Of a stretch of DNA of 64,000 bases, positions 8,077-64,000 are shown piece by piece. The stretch is from Basidiobolus meristosporus CBS 931.73 (lineage: Eukaryota; Basidiobolomycota; Basidiobolomycetes; Basidiobolales; Basidiobolaceae): positions 93,865 through 157,864 of the forward strand of contig MCFE01000135.1 of NCBI GenBank assembly GCA_002104905.1, written 5' to 3'. Position numbers and translations under genes: made by a program. The number at the start of each line of letters is the position of its first letter. Within the stretch, counting starts at the first letter, position 1. The notes beneath the pieces were generated by a model. That model searched no databases, was not told the origin of the DNA, and was given only the letters and a program-made list of their open reading frames with translations.

Positions 8077-10724
8077 ATGATTGTCAGTAAACTTCTTACC
8101 GGGGGCCTGGTTTTGGCCTTGGCTACACACGCTAATGCTGGAATATATCTTAATATTTTGGGTTCAAGCCCGAATTATGCCACACAGCCGGCAAATGCGA
8201 TGAAGCCCCGAAGGAGCTATTTCAACCCTATTTCAGGACTGCTCAAGGGTCTGACAAAAGTAGTGGATCCTAGATCGTATTTCACAAAGTCCCTAAAAAA
8301 GGCAGAAAAGACTGTAGGATCTTATGAGAGAATACTACAAGGTCCCACTTACTCGAATGATGGAAGCTATGGGTCGAAACCAAGCAAAAAAGCACCACGG
8401 CCAAAGGCAAAAGCTCAATTGAGGGGTCGATACGATGGGAGCCCTAAGTCAAAGATGATAAAACCGAAGGCACCCGAACACCCGACCAAGCATGATGGAT
8501 ATTCAAAACCCACCGAGTCATACATGCCCAATATCCAAACTACTCAAAAAAGTAAAGAAACAGTCATACGTGAAGCAAAGTCCCCATACAATGGTTCAAG
8601 CAATACGAATCCCACACCAAAGGCAAAGGGACCGTACGGTGGAAAACCCAAGGCACCCGGACACCCAACCAAGCACGATGGACATTCAAAGCCACTAAGC
8701 CAAAGTCCACTTATAATGGCCCAAGCTATCCTAAACCTACGCCAAAGAAAGAGTCAAAAGGAAAGGGTCCATATGGTGGAAAGCCCAAGCCAAAGAAGCT
8801 GACGAAACCCAAGGCACCCGGACACCCAACCAAGCACGATGGACATTCGAAGTCCACTGAGCCAAAGTCCGCTTATAATGGTCCAAGCTATCCTAAACCC
8901 ACCCCAAAGAAAGAGTCAAAAGGAAAGGGTCCATATGGTGGAAAACCTAAGCCGAAGAAGATGACAAAACCCAAGGCACCCGGACACCCAACCAAATATG
9001 ACGGATATTCGAAGCCCACTGAGCCAAAGGCCCCTAATAATGGTCCAAGCTATCCTAAACCCACCCCAAAGAAAGAGTCAAAAGGAAAGGGTCCATATGG
9101 TGGAAAGCCCAAGCCGAAGAAGCTGACGAAACCCAAGGCACCCGGACATCCAACCAAGCACGATGGATATTCGAAGCCCGCAGAGTCAAAATCCCCTTAC
9201 AATGGTCCAAGTTTCCCGACACCTGCACCAAAGAAGAAGGCACCCTCAAAGAGCCCATATGGTGGGAAACAGAAGGTACCCACACTCCACAAAAAAACAC
9301 CCGGACACCCAACCAAGCACGATGGGCATTCAAAGCCCACTAAGCCAAAGTCCCCCTACAATGGCCCAAGCTACCCTAAACCCACGCCAAAGAAAGAGTC
9401 AAAAGGAAAGGGTCCATATGGTGGAAACCCTAAGCCGAAGAAGATGACAAAACCCAAGGCACCCGGACATCCAATCAAGCACGATGGACATTCGAAGCCC
9501 GCTGAGCCAAAGTCCCCTTATAGCGGTCCAAGCTATCCGAAACCCACACCAAAGAGAGCACCAAAGACAAAAGGACCATATGGCGGAAAGCCCAAGCCCA
9601 AGAAGCTGACAAAACCTAAGGCACCCGGACACCCGACCAAACATGACGGATATTCGAAGCCCACTGAGCCAAAGTCCCCTAATAATGGTCCAAGCTATCC
9701 TAAACCCACCCCAAAGAAAGAGTCAAAAGGAAACCCCAAGCCAAAGAAGACAACGAAACCCAAGACACCCACACACCATAAAGACACCCCCGGACACTCC
9801 ACCAAGCACGATGGATATGCAAAACCTACTGAGTCGAAGGCTCCATACAGTGGCCCAAGTTATCCAAAGCCCACACCAAAGAAAATAACCAAGGTAAAGG
9901 CACCATCAGGAGGTCCATATGGTAGAAAACCTAAGCCGAGGAAGGCGACGGAACACCCAACCAAACACTATGGACACTCGGAACCCGCTAAGCCAAAATC
10001 TCCGTACAATGGCTCAAGCGAACCAAAGCCTACACCGAAGGCTGATGCTCCTTCGAAGAGTTCGTACGGCAGAAAACCTAAACCAAAGAAAGTGACGGAA
10101 CCGAAGGCACCAAAGGTAAAGAACCCACCCAAGAAGATACCAAAGACAAAAGCACCATCGACGCGACCATATGGTGGAAAACCTAAACCAAAGAGCGTAA
10201 TGGGGTATAAGGCACCCACATCGCACAAGCCCACGAATAAGCCCACGAAAACCGCCAAATCACAACCCCCTTACAAGCCTAAACCAAAGAGACCATCAAG
10301 GAAACCATATGGTAAAAAGCCAAGCCCAAAGAAAGCAACACCCAAAAAGCCCAATTCCCACACGGGAACTTCCAAACACGCGAGTAAACATGTCGAGTCA
10401 AAATCACCTTATGAATCCACGCCAACTCGAACCCCCAAACAGCAAGTAGCGCCCAACCCTTCCATGGAAACTTCAAAGGGCGTAAGGAAACCTCTTGCAT
10501 TGGCAGTAGATCAAGTTGCAGATCAGATATCTAACCACAAAGGGTCGCTGACTCCTGAGGAGCAAGATCTGATTGCGAACAAAATACTTGAACTGTCATT
10601 CCAAAATCAGGGAGGCGACTCTGATTTCATCGACTACAAGCATATTTCCAGGAATTTGGAGAGTATCAAGGATGCCAAGATCCGGAGGTTGATCCAGGAA
10701 ATAGTGGACAAGAAGTTGCAATAG
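8077..10724 (+). CDS. Secreted Lys/Pro/Gly-rich tandem-repeat protein (one frameshift)
   Basis: Residues 1-22 form a clear signal peptide (MIVSKLLTGGLVLALATHANA, cleavage after ANA). The mature protein is almost entirely ~55-residue repeats containing PGHPTKHDGYSKP, SPYNGPSYPKPTPKK and KGPYGGKPKPKK. A non-repetitive helical tail of about 80 residues follows. The frame breaks at 8692-8693: one copy has CC where all other copies have CCC (aag ccc act). Before the break the frame is 8077-8693 and after it 8694-10724; together they would encode about 882 residues. No stop other than the one caused by the shift is seen, and repeat periodicity runs straight through, so I treat this as one gene with a lost base. 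The very basic Pro/Gly repeat suggests a cell-wall or extracellular matrix role, but no family is recognised. Confidence 0.75.
8461..10050 (+). repeat. Coding tandem repeat, about 10 units of ~165 bp
   Basis: The sequence encoding HPTKHDG recurs near 8475, 8660, 8825, 8988, 9148, 9307, 9468, 9630, 9795 and 9955, mostly 160-170 bp apart. The internal copies from 8640 to 9740 are nearly identical at DNA level, pointing to recent unequal exchange. The outer copies are degenerate. Confidence 0.85.
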
Positions 10725-57111: not shown

Positions 57112-57848
57112 CAGTTCCAAGGTAGAGAAGTCTGATCTTATAGGGCATAAACCCAAAAGCACCAAGAATAGCATGTCTGTAGGGGCATTCAGGCAAATGA
57201 GGCACCAAGGAGGTAATGCACCATACTGCAAACTTGTCAAGCTTAGTGCAGTCTCTAGAAGTAAGAGAGAGAAGTGGTAAGCCAAACTCCAGGACAGGGA
57301 AGACAAACTGCTTGAGTAGAAGGAGGTAGCTGAGAGCTGAAGTTGTACAAGGAGTAACAGCCAGTAACTTGTGGAGTGCCTGTTTTGCCAGGATAATTCT
57401 CTTCTTCAGGTGTGCTCCAGAGTCTAGTCCAGTAGGAAGCAAAGGAATGCCAATATATAAAGCAGAAGCCTGAGTAAATAGAGTGCAGTTCTTCAAGTTG
57501 ATAGGACAGCCCAAAGGTACTGTTGTTGCAATGGAAAGCTGTAGATTATTCTTCTGCAGATACTGGTGGATGGTCTGGGAGTCTTGCTGCACATTGGAGG
57601 GGGACATTCTGATGTCATCAGCAAAGAGGGTAGCCAGGCAGTCAGCTGAGAGTCTTGGGAAATCATTTAGCAAGATGGCAAACAGTATAGGACCAAGCAC
57701 AGAGCCTTGAACCACTCCATTAGGAACTGAGAACACAGCTGATTGCTCACTTGGGTGCAGAATTCTTGCTTGTGGATCCTGAAACAGAGACCTGACAAGG
57801 AGGGTGAGAGAGGTACTGGAGAATCATTGCAGCTTGAACCAAAGCAGA
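57112..57848 (-). mobile_element. Internal fragment of a second LINE copy
   Basis: About 735 bp matching 59276-60012 of the full LINE at roughly 90-95 percent by eye. It covers the RT region from about NGVVQGSVLGPILFAI through the FADD motif toward the C-terminus, still as one open frame. The 3' part of the element is missing at 57112. At the other side homology stops at GCAGATTT, where TTAGGG and a SINE 3' end begin (57849). The copy is diverged and lacks both ends, so it is dead. Confidence 0.85.
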
Positions 57849-57854
57849 TTTAGG

Positions 57855-58143
57855 GGGAGGAAAGGCACCAAGTGGTGGAATCTTTATTTACTTATGACAG
57901 GTATCTAAAGAAGCCATCTTAATTTGGAATAATTCCTAGAAAGCTGGGTCTGAGACATATCTTCCTGGTAAGCCAGGTCTGAGAGTTGAGAAGCTGAGTG
58001 GTACTGTATTTCCTAGTTAGCTAGGTCTGAGAGAGATTTCCTGGAAAGCCAGGCCTGAGAATTGAGAATCTGAGTATATCTGAGATGAGTTGTACTGATT
58101 TGCAATAGCTGAATTGTGGCTGGAATTGCCAGTAGAGTGGGGG
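57855..58143 (-). mobile_element. SINE copy 1 (5' truncated)
   Basis: About 285 bp aligning with 62961-63245 of the longest SINE copy. It includes the CACCAAGTGGTG terminal hairpin and the four-hairpin body. It begins right after TTAGGG at 57849-57854. Homology ends at GCCAGTAGAGTGGG, where GGTTAGGGGGG and the next copy begin. Confidence 0.8.
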
Positions 58144-58149
58144 TTAGGG

Positions 58150-58273
58150 GGGAGGAAAGTCACCAAGTGGTGAAATCTTTATTTACTTATGACAAGTATC
58201 TAAAGAAGCCAAGTTAATCTGAAGTTATTCCTAGAAAGCTAGGTCTGAGAGATATCTTCCTGGTAAGCCAGGT
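58150..58273 (-). mobile_element. SINE copy 2 (short, 5' truncated)
   Basis: Homologous to the first ~125 bp of the SINE 3' end. It starts directly after TTAGGG (58144-58149) and stops at GTAAGCCAGGT, inside the second hairpin. Confidence 0.75.
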
Positions 58274-58631
58274 GTTGTATCCAAGAGAAAGTGTAATAAA
58301 ACTCTTGAATGGTTTAACTGAACCAAAGGGACAATTAAGTGCAGAATCTTAGAATTGTCAGAGAGTGGCGGAAATATTAGCAGAAAGATTCTGATCTAAT
58401 ATTGGTCTTGGATATAGCTGGGTTGGCTATAAAGGCAATGATATTTGTTTGCTAGGCAGGCTAGGCTTGGTGCTCTTTGGAGTGCTAGATATACTAGGCT
58501 TAGATAGAAACTAGAACGGAATTGTTGGATTCTTATTTTTGCTGAGACAGAAGCTTAATTTTGTTGAGACACACACTAAACCAAAAGGTTCAGTACACTT
58601 TATTTATACTTTTCTGATCAAGTTGAATTAG
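58274..58631. other. Unidentified segment between telomeric elements
   Basis: About 358 bp not matching the LINE or SINE, bounded by a SINE truncation point and an internal TTAGGG tract. Its start (TGTTGTATCC) and AT-rich body might be part of another transposon or an older chromosome end. No open frame is supported. Confidence 0.4.
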
Positions 58632-58660
58632 TAGGGTTAGGGTTAGGGTTAGGGTTAGGG
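58632..58660 (+). repeat. Interstitial telomere tract
   Basis: TAGGG followed by four TTAGGG units in the same orientation as the chromosome end, directly abutting a SINE 3' end. Confidence 0.95.
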
Positions 58661-58799
58661 GAGGAATGTCACCAAGTGGTGAAATCTTTATTTACTTATG
58701 ACAAGTATCTAAAGAAGCCAAGTTAATCTGAAGTTATTCCTAGAAAGCTAGGTCTGAGAGATATCTTCCTGGTAAGCCAGGTCTGAGAGTTGAGAAGCT
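58661..58799 (-). mobile_element. SINE copy 3 (5' truncated)
   Basis: About 140 bp matching the SINE 3' end. It starts GAGGAATGTCACC after the telomere tract and ends at TTGAGAAGCTG, where GGGTTAGGG and the LINE 3' end follow. Confidence 0.78.
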
Positions 58800-58865
58800 G
58801 GGTTAGGGGGGAGACAGTCACCAACAGGTGAAATCTTTATTTCAGTTGAAACAAAGAAGCCAGCG

Positions 58866-61634
58866 CTACTGTTGTAGCTTTGATACAAGAGTGTGTAGCT
58901 GAGGGGAATTTGTAGGTAAGTTAATAAGAAGTGATGATAGTTCTTCAGTGCTAAACACACTGTTCAGTGGGAAGGGGGGTAGCAAGAGAGGTAAGAATGA
59001 CTTGTGAACAACATTAATGAGGGGAATGTGATAAGGATTGATATTCATCATAAAGGGAGTGTGCTGCTGCAGATATTGCTGCCAAAGGTCTGTCAAGTAC
59101 TTTAGGTAGGCCAGCTTGGGCTTTTCTGACTGCAGAATAAATTCAGCAAACTTCTTGACTTCAGGATCTCCAAGTATAGTTCTCCAGCAGGAGTCAGGTG
59201 TAGTGTGGTGTGTTCTCTTCCAGGCCTTAATCAGTGGGTTGTTGCAGTTGTGAAGTCTGAGGTATAATCTGGTTCTAAGGTAGAGAAGTCTGATCTTATA
59301 GGGCATAAACCCAAAAGCACCAAGAATAGCATGTCTGTAGGGGCATTCAGGCAAATGAGGCACCAAGGAGGTAATGCACCATACGGCAAACTTGTCAAGC
59401 TTAGTGCAGTCTCTAGAAGTAAGAGAGAGAAGCGGTAAGCCAAATTCCAGGACAGGGAAGACAAACTGCTTGAGTAGAAGGAGGCAGCTTGGAGCTGAAG
59501 TTGTAGGAGGAGTAACAGCCAGTAGCTTGTGGAGTGCCTGTCTTGCCAGGATAATTCTCTTCTTCAGGTGTGCTCCAGAGTCTAGTCCAGTAGGAAGGAA
59601 AGGAAAGCCAAGATATGTAGCAGAAACCTGAGCAGGTAGAGTGGAGTTCTCCAAGTTGATGGGAGAGCCCAAAGGTACTGTCTTTGCAATGGAAAGCTGG
59701 AGATTATTCTTCTGCAGATACTGGTGGATGGTCTGGGAGTCTTGTTGCACATTGGAGGAGGATATTCTGATGTCATCAGCAAAGAGAGTAACCAGGCAGT
59801 CAGCTGAGAGTCTTGGGAAATCATTCAGGAAGATGGCAAACAGTATAGGACCAAGCACAGAGCCTTGAACCACTCCATTAGGAACTGAGAACACAGCTGA
59901 TTGCTCACTTGGGTGCAGAATTCTTGCTTGTGGATCCAGAAACAGAGACCTGACAAGGAGGGTGAGAGAGGTACTGGAGAAGCATTGCAACTTGGACCAA
60001 AGCAGATTTCTGTCAACTGAATCAAAGGCCTTAGTAATATCAAACAGAACTGAGGGATACTTGCACTGGAGAGAGTGATCTTGGCTAAGTATGACTGCAT
60101 ATTCCAAGGAGAGGCCAGGAACAAAGCCAAACTGTGCAGGATGAAACTTGAGGGAGTCAGAGTAGAGCTCCTGAGCAAGCAAAAGCTCAAACACCTTTCT
60201 GCAGGTGGGCAGCAGAGATATTGGCCTGTAGGAGCTAGGATCCAGGTGCTTTCCTTTACCCTTGTACAGTGGCAGAACATTTGCAAAGGACCATTCCTCA
60301 GGAGTAGAAAGCTGGGCTGAGCATTGCTGAAACAGTGGAAGCAGAAGTGCAGACATGGCCTTGGTACTAGTCTTCAGAAGCTCATAGGAGATTGTGTCCA
60401 CACCTGGAGCAGTAGAGTTGGGAAGCCTCTTGAGCACATTATGGATTCTCCTTTGATCAAGTGCAAGTGGGATGGGCAGAGTCTTGAAGTCAGGATGAAA
60501 GCCAGGAGTTGAGTACTGCTTTGTAGAGAAGAAGATGTTAGCCAGCTGTTCTGTTGAAGGTAACTTCCTGGAAGAGGGCCTCATTGCCCTGTAGAGTCTT
60601 GATACTGTTCTTGTTATAGAGTTGGAAGATTGCAGAGGCAAAGAACTCATAATATGATCCCAGAGCTGAGTATGCAGAGTGTGGTGAATTGCCTTGGAGT
60701 GGTGTATTGCTGTCAGGAGGAGTTTCTCTGTTTTTGGGTTAGGGAAACTCAGGTAGCTTTGTTGCAGGGCTGAAACAATGGATTCCCATTTTCTTGAGGT
60801 AACAGCAGTAGTCTTGCATGGCAGTGAGAGGGAGGCAGACACCAGAATCAGATGCTTCACAAAGAGCCAGGCATAGTTGATATCATCTGGCAGAGAAAGT
60901 AGCAAACTGGCAAGCTTCAAGTAGTTCCCAAAGTCTTTCTTCTGATTCTTGGTAGCTTTGTGGGTGAGCACAGTAAGTTTTGGCAGCTTCTTCTTCACAA
61001 CTGGTTGCATAGAAAGGGACCAGGCTGGGTGGTCAGAGGCTCTCAAGGATCCTAACTCAGCTCCAGAGAATTGCTTAACTTCATTCACAAAGTAGAGGGC
61101 AGCAGCAGAAGGGCAGATCCAGTCAACACATCTTTTCTCAGATTGAGCACCTAGTGCTAGCAGGTGGCTTTCTCTCAGGAAGTTCAGTAGGAATGTAGAC
61201 CTTGGCTTCATTCTTGCAGTCAGAGTAGTCTTGTTCTCAGGATGGGGAATGTTGAGATCTCCAAGCAAGATAACAGGTGTTGATATAGATTGCTGGTATT
61301 GCTGAACCTTCTGGCATATAACTTGCACTTCCTGAAGGGCAAGACTTGGAGGCAGATAGCAGAGCACCAGACTGATAGTTGGCAACTGGAGAGCAGCACA
61401 GTAAGGGGAGTAAAGAGGAACACAGAGCTGAGGAGTATTGATGGTAGAAGAGATGAAGCAGATAGAGGAGGTATTCTTTGTTCTAGGAGTAGAAAAGCAA
61501 TATAGATTAGTCAAAAGTATAGAAGGTAGCTGAACATCAATCAAACACAGGAGGGAAAATCTTGAAAGAAGTCTCTCTAGAGTTGGTCTTGATGGCTGTA
61601 TGCTGTTGCAGTTAAGCAACAGAACTTCAGGTAG
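58866..61634 (-). CDS. LINE ORF2: APE endonuclease and reverse transcriptase
   Basis: About 922 codons directly after the ORF1 stop and in the same frame. The endonuclease begins at once (LLLNCNSIQ) and has VILLGDLNIPHPEN and RASDHPAW, the GDxN and SDH motifs of APE-type nucleases. The reverse transcriptase has KGKGKHLDPSSYRPISLL, a SVLFDITKAFDSVDR block, NGVVQGSVLGPILFAI and the catalytic FADD. A C-terminal region with scattered Cys and His follows. The first ATG is at about residue 137 of the TTG-initiated frame, after the GDLN motif, so independent initiation would destroy the nuclease. The reading frame is intact, so the element may be active. Confidence 0.88.
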   Translation of the reverse strand, partial: LPEVLLLNCNSIQPSRPTLERLLSRFSLLCLIDVQLPSILLTNLYCFSTPRTKNTSSICFISSTINTPQLCVPLYSPYCAALQLPTISLVLCYLPPSLALQEVQVICQKVQQYQQSISTPVILLGDLNIPHPENKTTLTARMKPRSTFLLNFLRESHLLALGAQSEKRCVDWICPSAAALYFVNEVKQFSGAELGSLRASDHPAWSLSMQPVVKKKLPKLTVLTHKATKNQKKDFGNYLKLASLLLSLPDDINYAWLFVKHLILVSASLSLPCKTTAVTSRKWESIVSALQQSYLSFPNPKTEKLLLTAIHHSKAIHHTLHTQLWDHIMSSLPLQSSNSITRTVSRLYRAMRPSSRKLPSTEQLANIFFSTKQYSTPGFHPDFKTLPIPLALDQRRIHNVLKRLPNSTAPGVDTISYELLKTSTKAMSALLLPLFQQCSAQLSTPEEWSFANVLPLYKGKGKHLDPSSYRPISLLPTCRKVFELLLAQELYSDSLKFHPAQFGFVPGLSLEYAVILSQDHSLQCKYPSVLFDITKAFDSVDRNLLWSKLQCFSSTSLTLLVRSLFLDPQARILHPSEQSAVFSVPNGVVQGSVLGPILFAIFLNDFPRLSADCLVTLFADDIRISSSNVQQDSQTIHQYLQKNNLQLSIAKTVPLGSPINLENSTLPAQVSATYLGFPFLPTGLDSGAHLKKRIILARQALHKLLAVTPPTTSAPSCLLLLKQFVFPVLEFGLPLLSLTSRDCTKLDKFAVWCITSLVPHLPECPYRHAILGAFGFMPYKIRLLYLRTRLYLRLHNCNNPLIKAWKRTHHTTPDSCWRTILGDPEVKKFAEFILQSEKPKLAYLKYLTDLWQQYLQQHTPFMMNINPYHIPLINVVHKSFLPLLLPPFPLNSVFSTEELSSLLINLPTNSPQLHTLVSKLQQ

Positions 61635-62852
61635 TCAGGCAGAGGTTGTAGCTTCTTCAGAGGCAGCATTGATAATGTGACCTGCAGAGTCCCAGAGCTC
61701 TTCAAATGGTGCATCACTTAAGTCAGCAAGGAGGGAAATGGCATGATTCTTGAGGAAGTATGCCACATCATAGGAGGGGGCTTGTCTCTTGATGGCAGCA
61801 AAGAAAGACAGAATGGCAACATGGGCTGGAGGCTTGTTGAACAGTAGAGAGTCAGAGGATTCAGATTCTTCAGGCACCATCTTGAAGTCAGTTTTCAGCC
61901 AGTTAAGGTTCTTCTCCACAAAGGCAACAAATGGGTCAGCAATGTTTTGGTCTAGGATAACCTCCAGAATCTTCCCTTTTCTCCAGGCCAGGTTGACAAT
62001 TCTTGAGAGCTGAATATTGCATGCCTTGAGTGCTTTCCTGATGTTGGAAATGGGAGTCCAGGGAACTTGCTTCAAGTACACTATCCAGTTGTTCTGTAAA
62101 ACACTGGAGTAGCTTTTCTGTGGAACAGGATCTTGCTCTTGAACAGGAACAGAAGCAGGAGGCTGGGGCTGAGCAGTAGTGGTAAGGCAGTGGCACTCCA
62201 AGGAAGCTTTTTGCAAGGCATCTCTGGCAGTTTTCAGGGCAGTATTGGCTTCATTCTTGAGCTTCTTGCATTGGGCATCCAGTCTCTTGTTTTCAATAGC
62301 CAGGGCAGTATTGGCAGCCTCTAAATCAGCAATTCTCTTCTCAACTGCAAGGAATCTCTGAAGAAATGCATCAGTAGAAGTGCTGGCATCTGGAAGAGCA
62401 GTGGCAGGAATAGAGTCCATTGACAGTGGGCTTCTTGGAGGCAAGGAAAGTGGACTGGCAGATTCAGGCACAAAAGGAGATATCCTGGCAGGAGGAGAAG
62501 GAGTATCCAAGGCAGTAACAGAGGCAATTCTTGTTGGTGAAGCAGCAGCAGGGGAGGCAAGCCTGTTCAGAAACTGGGCAGGAGAGAGTGCTTGAGGAGA
62601 GGGAGTCTTCAGCTTGCCAAGCATGTCTTCCATCAGAGTGATACCAATATTCCTGGTGCATTTGCAGAGAAAAGTAAGCTTCCTGAGTCTGCCAGCTCTT
62701 CCATTCCTTCTGATAGTTCCTTTGTTTCCACAGTTGGGGCAAGAAATCTTCTTGACAGACTTGTCAAAGCAATCAAGAACCTTTCTTTCAGGTGCAGTGG
62801 GCTCCTGTTGAGGTTTTGGTGGCATATCCAGAGTTTCAGCTTCAAATTTCAA
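61635..62852 (-). CDS. LINE ORF1: zinc-binding, coiled-coil nucleic-acid protein
   Basis: About 405 residues (or about 396 from the internal MPPKPQ start). Near the N-terminus is a Cys motif, CPNCGNKG, followed about 20 residues later by CKC. The middle is Ser/Pro-rich, then comes a coiled coil (FLAVEKRIADLEAANTALAI and onward) and a C-terminal domain with VYLKQVPWTPISNIRKALK. ORF1 proteins bind element RNA and act as chaperones. The frame ends in TGA followed by CTA (61637-61632 on the minus strand), with ORF2 continuing in frame. Confidence 0.75.
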   Translation of the reverse strand: MKFEAETLDMPPKPQQEPTAPERKVLDCFDKSVKKISCPNCGNKGTIRRNGRAGRLRKLTFLCKCTRNIGITLMEDMLGKLKTPSPQALSPAQFLNRLASPAAASPTRIASVTALDTPSPPARISPFVPESASPLSLPPRSPLSMDSIPATALPDASTSTDAFLQRFLAVEKRIADLEAANTALAIENKRLDAQCKKLKNEANTALKTARDALQKASLECHCLTTTAQPQPPASVPVQEQDPVPQKSYSSVLQNNWIVYLKQVPWTPISNIRKALKACNIQLSRIVNLAWRKGKILEVILDQNIADPFVAFVEKNLNWLKTDFKMVPEESESSDSLLFNKPPAHVAILSFFAAIKRQAPSYDVAYFLKNHAISLLADLSDAPFEELWDSAGHIINAASEEATTSA

Positions 62853-62894
62853 TTTTTGAGATTTTTGGGTGATTTTTGATGGGCGGGATCAAAA

Positions 62895-62908
62895 TTAGGG
62901 TTAGGGTT
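62895..62908 (+). repeat. Interstitial telomere repeats at the LINE 5' end
   Basis: TTAGGGTTAGGGTT adjoins the 5' end of the LINE. A 42-bp unique stretch (62909-62950) and then the next SINE follow. Confidence 0.9.
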
Positions 62909-62960
62909 GCGCGCTGTGACTGCTTTTTACGATCGCAAGGTCAGAACCTAGGGGAGGGGG

Positions 62961-63482
62961 GAGGAAAGTCACCAAGTGGTGAAATCTTTATTTACTTATG
63001 ACAAGTATCTAAAGAAGCCAAGTTAATCTGAAGTAATTCCTAGAAAGCTAGGTCTGAGAGATATCTTCCTGGTAAGCCAGGTCTGAGAGTTGAGAAGCTG
63101 AGTGGTACTATATTTCCTAGTTAGCTAGGTCTGAGAGAGGTTTCCTGGAAAGCCAGGCCTGAGAAGTGAGAATCTGAATATATCTGAGCTAAGTTATACT
63201 GGTTTGCGGTAGCTGAATTGTGGCCGGAATGGCCAGTAGACTGGGGGAACTGAGATGAATTTCTGGGCAATCACTGGCCAAATTTACTAGGCAAATCTGG
63301 CCAATTAGCATTTCAAGGATTTCAGCCAATCAGAGCCTTTACTTTGCCCGATGGTTGATCAAGCCATCTCCCAATGAGCACACATCAATTTATTAATCAA
63401 ATTTTGCTGGATCCAGGATTTGAACCCACAACCATGGGTATGGAAGGGTTAGGGATAACCACAAGGCTAAGTGTTCTTGGTT
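62961..63482 (-). mobile_element. Longest SINE copy with tRNA-like head
   Basis: About 520 bp on the minus strand. The 5' head (near 63416-63475) has RNA polymerase III A and B boxes. The body (63039-63157) has four tandem 5-bp hairpins. The 3' end has CACCAAGTGGTG and CTTTCCTCC, like the LINE tail. There is no coding capacity. On the plus strand its start follows a degenerate TAGGGGAGGGG. Its far end is followed by TTTGGTTAGGG and the next LINE 3' end. A tRNA-derived SINE mobilised by the neighbouring LINE is the best reading. Confidence 0.7.
63416..63469 (-). other. tRNA-like Pol III promoter of the SINE
   Basis: The A box TAGCCTTGTGG (63469-63459) and B box GGTTCAAATCC (63426-63416) are 32 nt apart, the normal spacing in tRNAs. 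The acceptor and T stems do not pair well, so it is not a working tRNA gene. Confidence 0.7.
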
Positions 63483-63491
63483 TGGTTAGGG

Positions 63492-63762
63492 GGGAGACAG
63501 TCACCAACAGGTGAAATCTTTATTTCAGTTGAAACAAAGAAGCCAGCGCTACTGTTGTAGCTTTGATACATGAGTGTGTAGCTGAGGGGAATTTGTAGGT
63601 AAGTTAATAAGAAGTGATGATAGCTCTTCAGTGCTCAAGACACTGTTCAGTGGGAAGGAGGGTAGCAAGAGAGGTAAGAATGACTTGTGAACAACATTAA
63701 TGAGGGGAATGTGATAAGGATTGATATTCATCATAAAGGGAGTGTGCTGCTGCAGATATTGC
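63492..63762 (-). mobile_element. 5'-truncated LINE capped by the telomere
   Basis: 271 bp nearly identical to 58809-59079, including the ORF2 C-terminus and 3' UTR. It starts after GGTTAGGG (63484-63491). It breaks at CAGATATTGCT, where the terminal TTAGGG array begins. Confidence 0.9.
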
Positions 63763-64000
63763 TTAGGGTTAGGGTTAGGGTTAGGGTTAGGGTTAGGGTT
63801 AGGGTTAGGGTTAGGGTTAGGGTTAGGGTTAGGGTTAGGGTTAGGGTTAGGGTTAGGGTTAGGGTTAGGGTTAGGGTTAGGGTTAGGGTTAGGGTTAGGG
63901 TTAGGGTTAGGGTTAGGGTTAGGGTTAGGGTTAGGGTTAGGGTTAGGGTTAGGGTTAGGGTTAGGGTTAGGGTTAGGGTTAGGGTTAGGGTTAGGGTTAG
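63763..64000 (+). repeat. Chromosome-terminal telomere (TTAGGG)n
   Basis: About 39-40 uninterrupted TTAGGG units run to the window edge with the G-rich strand 5' to 3' outward. They mark the right end of the chromosome. Confidence 0.98.

What the first reader, a model, noticed from the sequence alone, without database searches (positions are those of the whole stretch)
57112..63762. Telomere-embedded LINE/SINE array oriented as expected for telomere-primed insertion
Seven element copies (one full LINE, two partial LINEs, four SINEs) are stacked just inside the telomere. All lie on the minus strand, with the 3' end toward the centromere and the 5' end toward the telomere. If a chromosome's TTAGGG 3'-OH primes first-strand synthesis, the antisense cDNA extends the G-strand and gives exactly this order. 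Telomere-targeted non-LTR elements are known (TRAS/SART in insects, MoTeR in Magnaporthe, Zepp in Chlorella), but an APE-type LINE with its own SINE at a fungal telomere would be unusual. These elements may help maintain or buffer chromosome ends.
Basis: partly seen in the sequence, partly recalled or inferred. Interest (0 to 1): 0.9.

Follow-up and report, generated by a model that had tools for sequence, protein, structure and literature searches.

The report
LINE, SINE and Gag-only chromosome-end caps
A fungus whose chromosomes end in ordinary TTAGGG telomeres also stacks partner jumping genes, one after another and nearly all in the same direction, directly behind those telomeres, in a way that suggests the elements are copied onto worn-out chromosome ends.

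Summary
Window 57114-63763 carries seven minus-strand copies (three LINE, four SINE), 5' ends facing a 238-nt TTAGGG array. The host is a Basidiobolus-like fungus (89 Mb, 1311 contigs). Of 145 listed LINE 3' ends on contigs over 45 kb, 140 lie within 20 kb of the contig end they face. The LINE, a SINE with a tRNA-type B box and two ORF1-only ("Gag-only") families, found here, share one 3' hairpin tail ending in a C-run. Most 3' ends join their inner neighbour through a very short telomeric stub: median 8 nt, longest 32 nt in 104 junctions. Terminal arrays are mostly 142-263 nt. Such short stubs argue against insertion into intact telomeres. Truncated ends show extra microhomology to the stub. 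One copy sits on a chance GGGTTAGGG inside another LINE whose outer part is gone. Best reading: the G-strand 3' end of an eroded or broken chromosome primes reverse transcription; telomerase (TERT pieces present) caps the product. This works like rotifer Athena and Drosophila HeT-A/TART, but with an APE-type LINE, a SINE and Gag-only elements in a telomerase-encoding fungus. Endonuclease use, the source of the stub and any benefit to the host are not shown.

The parts
57114..57851 (-). partial LINE-A (element positions 464-1201 from the 3' end), 94.9% identical; lacks its 3' end
   Evidence: C353:150978-151715
57857..58143 (-). 5'-truncated SINE (positions 1-287), 92% identical
58152..58273 (-). 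5'-truncated SINE (positions 1-122), 99.2% identical; 3' junction GGGTTAGGGGGG
58274..58631 (.). LTR-like repeat of about 357 nt, also seen in another subtelomere (C2:257640 onward)
   Evidence: identity as LTR inferred
58632..58660 (+). interior telomeric stub of 29 nt, second longest of the 104 read
58661..58803 (-). 5'-truncated SINE (positions 1-143)
58809..62953 (-). LINE-A copy, nearly full (lacks 318 nt of ORF1 and the 5' monomer)
58809..58842 (-). shared 3' tail: RNA AAAUAAAG-AUUUCACC-loop-GGUGACU, then a C-run joined to the telomeric stub; predicted 5-bp hairpin
58866..61634 (-). ORF2, 922 aa: APE-type endonuclease (residues 1-213) and reverse transcriptase; same frame as ORF1, separated by one UGA followed by CUA
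61635..62852 (-). ORF1, 405 aa in this copy (511 aa in C1224); Cys-rich N-terminus and coiled coil suggested only by matches below Pfam cut-offs
62890..62953 (-). LINE 5' region with an internal CCCTAACCCTAA motif
62961..63484 (-). full-length SINE (522 nt): B box GGTTCAAATCC, internal CCCTAACC, no TTTT, 5' end AACC
63492..63763 (-). outermost partial LINE-A (positions 1-272), directly abutting the telomere
63763..64000 (+). terminal (TTAGGG)n array, 238 nt, at the contig end

Best explanation
A set of telomere-end retroelements: an autonomous APE-type LINE (LINE-A, about 4.56 kb), a SINE with a tRNA-type B box and two ORF1-only families (B1, B2). All end in the same 3' hairpin plus C-run, so the LINE reverse transcriptase can probably use all of them. 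The element RNA pairs its C-run (perhaps C-run plus UAACC) with the 3' end of the G strand of a chromosome whose telomere is gone or nearly gone (about one TTAGGG). That 3'-OH primes cDNA synthesis, so the copy is added with its 3' end inward and its 5' end outward. The new, often 5'-truncated end is then extended by telomerase into an array of roughly 20-44 repeats, or receives another element at once. Shown by sequence: shared tail, orientation, terminal location, very short stubs, excess microhomology at truncated ends, and no LINE or SINE copy seen to be split by another LINE or SINE in the stretches read. Inferred: priming by the G-strand end, RT supplied in trans, telomerase capping, and that the endonuclease is dispensable at these sites.
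For: Orientation and location. Stub lengths, LINE-A genome-wide: 653 3' ends; 495 with at least TTAGGG, 348 with GGTTAGGG, 118 with two repeats, 5 with four; the tail part of the pattern differs slightly between these counts. 104 junctions read: median 8, maximum 32 nt; 89 of 104 have a full TTAGGG. Terminal arrays 142-263 nt in 13 of 16 ends; three were cut by my fetch, and one of these (C915) can be at most about 117 nt. A random site in the 13 arrays gives a stub of 32 nt or less with probability 0.16 per junction. Microhomology 1.7 nt mean in 25 truncated flanks against 0.39 expected; one search lists 27, and two that were compared with themselves were dropped. C162: new LINE seated on the internal GGGTTAGGG of ORF2, original 5' part lost, telomere outside. 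Of 32 full-length SINE 5' ends (GGTT on the G strand), 17 run through A plus a G-run straight into the next tail. Shared tail and hairpin. TERT RNA-binding-domain pieces. 15 of 16 array-bearing ends read have an element within 52 nt of the array, 10 directly, but those ends were chosen because they carry elements; of the first five array-bearing contigs listed, five carry the tail.
Against: The endonuclease is a complete predicted fold with the catalytic positions kept except Glu to Asp, so nicking at telomeric DNA is possible. Of 653 LINE-A 3' ends, 158 lack a full TTAGGG next to the tail, and one of ten B1-type tails read has none (C302). Interior copies exist: C402:165 kb (90% identical relic) and a three-tail reverse cluster at C558:97-99 kb; C355 holds a 48-nt inverted fragment; C473 and C646 lie about 21 and 24 kb from the end. 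Short stubs could also arise if insertion always hits the innermost repeat, or if longer stubs shrank later. No transcript, RNA 3' end or protein was measured.
Confidence: 0.62

Rival explanations
1. Endonuclease-cut insertion targeted to the boundary between subtelomere and telomere: ORF2 nicks the first one or two repeats, whichever element lies inside, so each new copy appears outermost with a short stub.
For: Complete APE fold with conserved active-site positions; produces the same order and orientation; most stubs run TTAGGG into extra G.
Against: All repeats have the same sequence, so an unknown chromatin mark would have to single out the first one; does not explain excess microhomology of truncated ends or C162, where the outer part of the host LINE is missing.
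Confidence: 0.2
2. SART/TRAS-like insertion by nicking anywhere inside intact TTAGGG arrays.
Against: Only 5 of 653 LINE 3' ends have four or more repeats inside, against about 24-44 repeats in 13 terminal arrays. No poly(A) seen at the junctions listed; SART1Bm needs a poly(A) tail for accurate insertion and at least three repeats (PMC7265360, abstract).
Confidence: 0.05
3. The arrays grow mainly by exchange or break-induced copying between chromosome ends, with few new insertions.
For: C324 has three LINE 3' ends at equal 283-bp spacing; the window's outermost LINE and C269 are truncated at the same base.
Against: Many different partner combinations, truncation points and G-run lengths (mostly 3 to 10) among 104 junctions.
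Confidence: 0.15
4. Successive elements are laid down in one reaction by template jumping of the RT from one RNA's 5' end to the next RNA's tail; TTAGGG is copied from the RNA (C-run plus UAACC), not made by telomerase.
For: Exact GGTT-AGGG-tail junctions after full-length SINEs: 17 of the 32 SINE 5' ends found are A plus a G-run, then the next tail.
Against: Stub length falls off by about 4-5 fold per repeat with no sharp limit; many junctions follow truncated copies.
Confidence: 0.3

Closest known systems
Athena elements of bdelloid rotifers (endonuclease-deficient Penelope-like)
   Same: Added at chromosome ends; short stretches of telomeric repeats at the 3' end and 5' truncation, read as addition to uncapped ends (passage in PMC5537684, section 15).
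   Different: Penelope-like RT without endonuclease; here a LINE-type RT with an APE endonuclease and with SINE and ORF1-only partners.
Drosophila HeT-A / TART / TAHRE
   Same: Head-to-tail arrays in one orientation at ends; HeT-A lacks the enzymes needed to transpose and borrows RT (PMC5537684, passages), like B1 and B2 here; APE-type Pol.
   Different: Drosophila has no telomerase and uses poly(A) tails; here TTAGGG arrays cap the ends read, the tail is a hairpin plus C-run, and there is a SINE.
SART1 / TRAS1 of Bombyx
   Same: APE endonuclease, telomere location; SART is inserted in the TTAGG strand.
   Different: They sit inside repeat arrays, and SART1 needs at least three repeats and a poly(A) tail (PMC7265360, abstract and introduction); here stubs are mostly under two repeats and no poly(A) was seen.
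MoTeR1, Cnl1 and FoTeR of other fungi
   Same: Fungal telomeric non-LTR elements; MoTeR2 as a non-autonomous partner (recalled).
   Different: They form one RT clade with SLACS and CRE, also seen with their restriction-like endonuclease domains (PMC12857005, section 18); this one has an APE endonuclease. FoTeR 3' ends carry 3 to 8 repeats (section 19, Table 3).
Zepp1 (Chlorella), Tx1-1_ACar (anole), Hebe (rotifer)
   Same: LINEs at or near telomeres; Hebe has an APE domain (PMC2861651, passages; the other two as named in PMC10088271, passages).
   Different: No shared-tail SINE or Gag-only partner is mentioned in the passages I saw; not compared by sequence.
Stringent-type LINE/SINE pairs (UnaL2, ZfL2)
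   Same: SINE shares the LINE's 3' stem-loop (recalled).
   Different: Known pairs are not telomere-directed (recalled; PMC4176376 seen only in a search listing with the start of its abstract).

Membership tests
SART/TRAS (R1-clade telomere LINEs) | APE-type endonuclease | tested here: met
SART/TRAS (R1-clade telomere LINEs) | sits inside multi-repeat arrays, poly(A) 3' end | tested here: not met
   118 of 653 3' ends have two or more repeats, 5 have four or more; no poly(A) seen in the 104 junctions
SART/TRAS (R1-clade telomere LINEs) | RT in the R1 clade | not tested
   no named R1 reference sequences at hand; the family is an isolated clade among 42 rows
MoTeR/FoTeR/Cnl1 (CRE-like) | restriction-like endonuclease instead of APE | tested here: not met
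   N-terminal APE fold and weak APE Pfam matches below cut-off; the C-terminus was not searched on its own
MoTeR/FoTeR/Cnl1 (CRE-like) | location at telomeres | tested here: met
Athena / endonuclease-deficient PLE | Penelope-type RT, no endonuclease | tested here: not met
Athena / endonuclease-deficient PLE | short telomeric stretch at the 3' junction, 5' truncations, terminal location | tested here: met
Drosophila HTT system | uniform head-to-tail orientation at chromosome ends | tested here: met
   five exceptions of 145
Drosophila HTT system | Gag-only partner element | tested here: met
   B1 242-aa and B2 266-aa ORFs, 35% and 29% identical to the LINE ORF1 C-terminus; at least 40 B1 matches
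Drosophila HTT system | no telomerase, no simple repeats | tested here: not met
   (TTAGGG)n arrays and Telomerase_RBD pieces
Stringent LINE/SINE pair | common 3' stem-loop tail | tested here: met
   sequence shared; hairpin predicted in all three tails, clearly better than shuffles only for the LINE
Stringent LINE/SINE pair | SINE mobilised by the LINE's protein | not testable with these tools
   needs a retrotransposition assay
tRNA-derived SINE | Pol III A and B boxes near the 5' end | tested here: inconclusive
   B box exact at position 57, only a loose A box at 14; ARAGORN and Rfam found no tRNA

The most novel reading that the evidence does not exclude
A telomerase-encoding fungus runs a second, retrotransposon-based end-capping system: when an end has lost its TTAGGG array, a consortium of LINE, Gag-only elements and SINE, all with the same tail, is copied onto the bare 3' end, and telomerase then builds a new array on it. 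The Gag-only families are maintained for telomere targeting, as proposed for HeT-A, making this an independent, telomerase-compatible counterpart of the Drosophila system.
Probability: 0.4. Interest if true: 0.88.

Novelty: new variant of a known kind. Interest (0 to 1): 0.72.

Why it matters
How retrotransposons could stand in for telomerase, as in flies, is an old question. The best-known cases either lost telomerase or insert into existing arrays (recalled, and in the papers cited). Here telomerase-type repeats and end-primed elements appear to work on the same ends, with hundreds of junctions to read. If right, it is a natural experiment on competition between telomerase and LINEs for bare ends, and it shows an APE-type LINE, a SINE and Gag-only elements sharing one tail. 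The fungal telomeric elements named in the paper I read (MoTeR1, Cnl1, FoTeR; PMC12857005) are of the restriction-like-endonuclease kind. I found no report of this system, judging by titles and starts of abstracts, in: 'Basidiobolus + telomer' (4 papers; passages of one read), 'Basidiobolus meristosporus + retrotransposon' (6 papers, 4 listed), telomeric-SINE terms (1 paper, 1 frog paper with 'subtelomeric SINE', not read), and telomere/LINE/SINE/fungus (21 papers, 15 listed). The library is open-access only and lacks most subscription papers.

Tried and rejected
Insertion into intact arrays (SART-like): rejected on stub length. ORF1 function by Pfam and PDB: only sub-threshold, mostly coiled-coil-like matches. 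B1 protein homologues: 178 candidates, none at E of 0.001 or better. Naming the RT clade: the 42-row tree shows an isolated, fully supported clade of six (window ORF2 plus P0001-P0005) on a long branch, but no named TRAS, SART, Zepp or Tad references were available (41 of the 88 proteins were used). Those five nearest relatives are unnamed, with no DNA to read. Covariation of the hairpin was not attempted because its stem does not vary in the three tails; of these, only the LINE one folds clearly better than shuffles (z -2.4, -1.4, -1.9). Foldseek 'pdb' could not be run; the VIA-align list does not speak for or against an RLE domain. Interrupted copies: of 22 matches that do not begin at the 3' end, six had a possible earlier partner in the same stretch. 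Four are the 318-nt ORF1 segment missing from my reference. One is a SINE on C32 split by about 350 nt with a 4-nt overlap, which I read as an ordinary insertion of the LTR-like repeat (inserted sequence not compared directly). One is a pair of short tail-like matches on C23, which I read as two tails. In one search an inner step of my script failed, so only LINE and SINE were used as queries there. The 104-junction pattern misses tails with a 4-letter loop; the ten of these read later show nine with a TTAGG-type stub and one (C302) without.
Full report
What is there. The window ends in a 238-nt TTAGGG array. The window is part of an 89.0-Mb genome in 1311 contigs. A tryptophan-synthesis protein encoded in the window is 85% identical to one of Basidiobolus ranarum, the next named fungus outside that species being at 61%.

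The partners. The SINE (522 nt) has an exact B box, no internal TTTT and a loose A box. It shares with the LINE the tail AAAUAAAGAUUUCACC-loop-GGUGACU and C-run. Reading the neighbours turned up a third kind: elements with the same tail that code only an ORF1-like protein. B1 (242 aa) matches the LINE ORF1 C-terminus at 35% identity over 162 aa (E 3e-21); B2 (266 aa) at 29% over 155 aa; B1 and B2 are 43-44% identical. B1 has at least 40 long matches (40 of 459 candidates scored; some candidates may share only the tail), and 5' monomer arrays. dN/dS of six non-independent B1 pairs runs from 0.26 to 0.59, and is 0.26-0.33 in the three most diverged pairs, which suggests that the protein is kept. 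C27 and C1 also hold pieces of a second LINE related to P0005.

Where they are. The shared tail occurs 1031 times forward and 76 times reverse. (TTAGGG)8 gives 5821 and 62 overlapping matches, so the contigs are mostly stored with the telomere on the right. Of 215 LINE-A 3' ends taken from the listings (653 in all; searches list only ends with a stub), 145 lie on contigs over 45 kb; 140 of these are within 20 kb of the end that their 5' end faces, against about 16% expected for random places. In the listing alone, not selected for a stub, it is 40 of 40. The five exceptions are C402 (an older, 90% identical relic), C558 (an interior reverse cluster), C355 (a 48-nt inverted fragment), C473 and C646 (about 21 and 24 kb from the end). 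C424 carries arrays at both contig ends, each with mirror-oriented elements.

The junctions. In 104 3' junctions read from held loci, the telomeric stub (counting three of the G run) has median 8 and maximum 32 nt; 98 are 12 nt or less and 89 hold a full TTAGGG. Genome-wide for LINE-A: 495 of 653 have at least TTAGGG, 348 GGTTAGGG, 118 two repeats, 5 four repeats, a fall of about four to five fold per repeat. Terminal arrays are 142-263 nt in the 13 ends not cut by my fetch; of the three cut, C915 can be at most about 117 nt. These are lower bounds, as contigs end inside the arrays. Insertion at random sites in the 13 arrays would leave stubs of 32 nt or less in only 16% of cases. Stubs are no longer where the inner neighbour matches no element of my reference set (29 of 104; median 6, maximum 12 nt).

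Signs of end priming. Where the inner neighbour is a 5'-truncated copy, the stub overlaps the lost sequence by 1.7 nt on average, against 0.39 expected (25 flanks). In C162 a new LINE starts exactly at GGGTTAGGG within ORF2 of an older copy, the older copy's outer part is missing, and a telomere follows. After full-length SINEs, whose sense 5' end AACC reads GGTT on the G strand, the next tail follows after A and a G-run alone in 17 of 32 cases; five more are terminal arrays. In the stretches read, no LINE or SINE copy resumes beyond an inserted LINE or SINE, with two ambiguous cases explained in Tried and rejected. One constant stop rate per nucleotide, fitted to SINEs (35 of 51 full length), predicts 3.7% full-length LINEs; at least 40 of 653 (6%) are seen. 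That fits either RT fall-off or erosion from outside, and does not tell them apart.

Mechanism. I think that the G-strand 3' end of a nearly telomere-less chromosome pairs with the C-run of the element RNA and primes reverse transcription, and that telomerase then caps the product. TERT RNA-binding-domain pieces are present (over the Pfam cut-off; one piece holds a stop, perhaps an intron edge). The single repeat before most copies may be telomerase's first addition, or may be copied from the RNA; the steady fall-off favours the former slightly. Boundary-directed nicking by the intact endonuclease remains the main rival.

Compared with the known. Athena elements were explained in the same way, from short telomeric stretches at 3' ends and 5' truncations (PMC5537684, passages read). 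HeT-A is the Gag-only precedent (same source). SART1 needs at least three repeats and a poly(A) tail (PMC7265360, abstract and introduction read). MoTeR1, Cnl1 and FoTeR are RLE-type (PMC12857005, abstract and sections 3, 18 and 19 read). A 2023 paper on telomeric retrotransposons does not use the term SINE (PMC10088271, passages; 0 occurrences). The mechanism is thus of a known kind; the cast, the shared tail and the co-existence with telomerase in a zygomycete fungus are the new part.

Limits. Only one genome was at hand; regions were chosen for carrying elements, so the share of ends without elements is not known (5 of the first 5 array-bearing contigs listed have the tail). No RNA or protein data were available. 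No benefit to the host is shown.

Noticed in passing
L107:1495-2927 (B1) and L107:495-1420 (B2): ORF1-only elements with the shared 3' tail; B1 has 5' tandem monomers of about 101 nt, and its protein found no homologues in the protein database.
   Followed up: yes
61630-61640: ORF1 and ORF2 lie in one frame separated by UGA CUA, a context recalled as favouring stop read-through; the same letters stand in L066 and L067.
   Followed up: partly
58274-58631; C2:257640 onward: LTR-like repeat of about 357 nt among the elements; a SINE on C32 is split by an insert of similar size with a 4-nt overlap.
   Followed up: partly
62890-62915 and 63440-63455: Both LINE and SINE carry an internal CCCTAACC motif; the LINE's lies in its 5' region (CCCTAACCCTAA), as if the 5' region had been acquired across a telomeric stub.
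   Followed up: no
L100 (C558:96800-99900), L101 (C402:164800-166600): Interior clusters or relics of the same elements with telomeric stubs far from contig ends: possible old fusions, internalised ends or assembly joins.
   Followed up: partly
L061 and L062 (C424, 312558 nt): Contig with telomere arrays and mirror-oriented elements at both ends, possibly a complete small chromosome.
   Followed up: no
8077-10724: Secreted-looking Lys/Pro-rich repeat protein ORFs with a 162-bp tandem repeat (APGHPTKHDGYSKP type).
   Followed up: no
whole genome G000: TTAGGG arrays are 99% on the forward strand of contigs (5821 against 62 overlapping matches), an odd orientation bias of the assembly.
   Followed up: no
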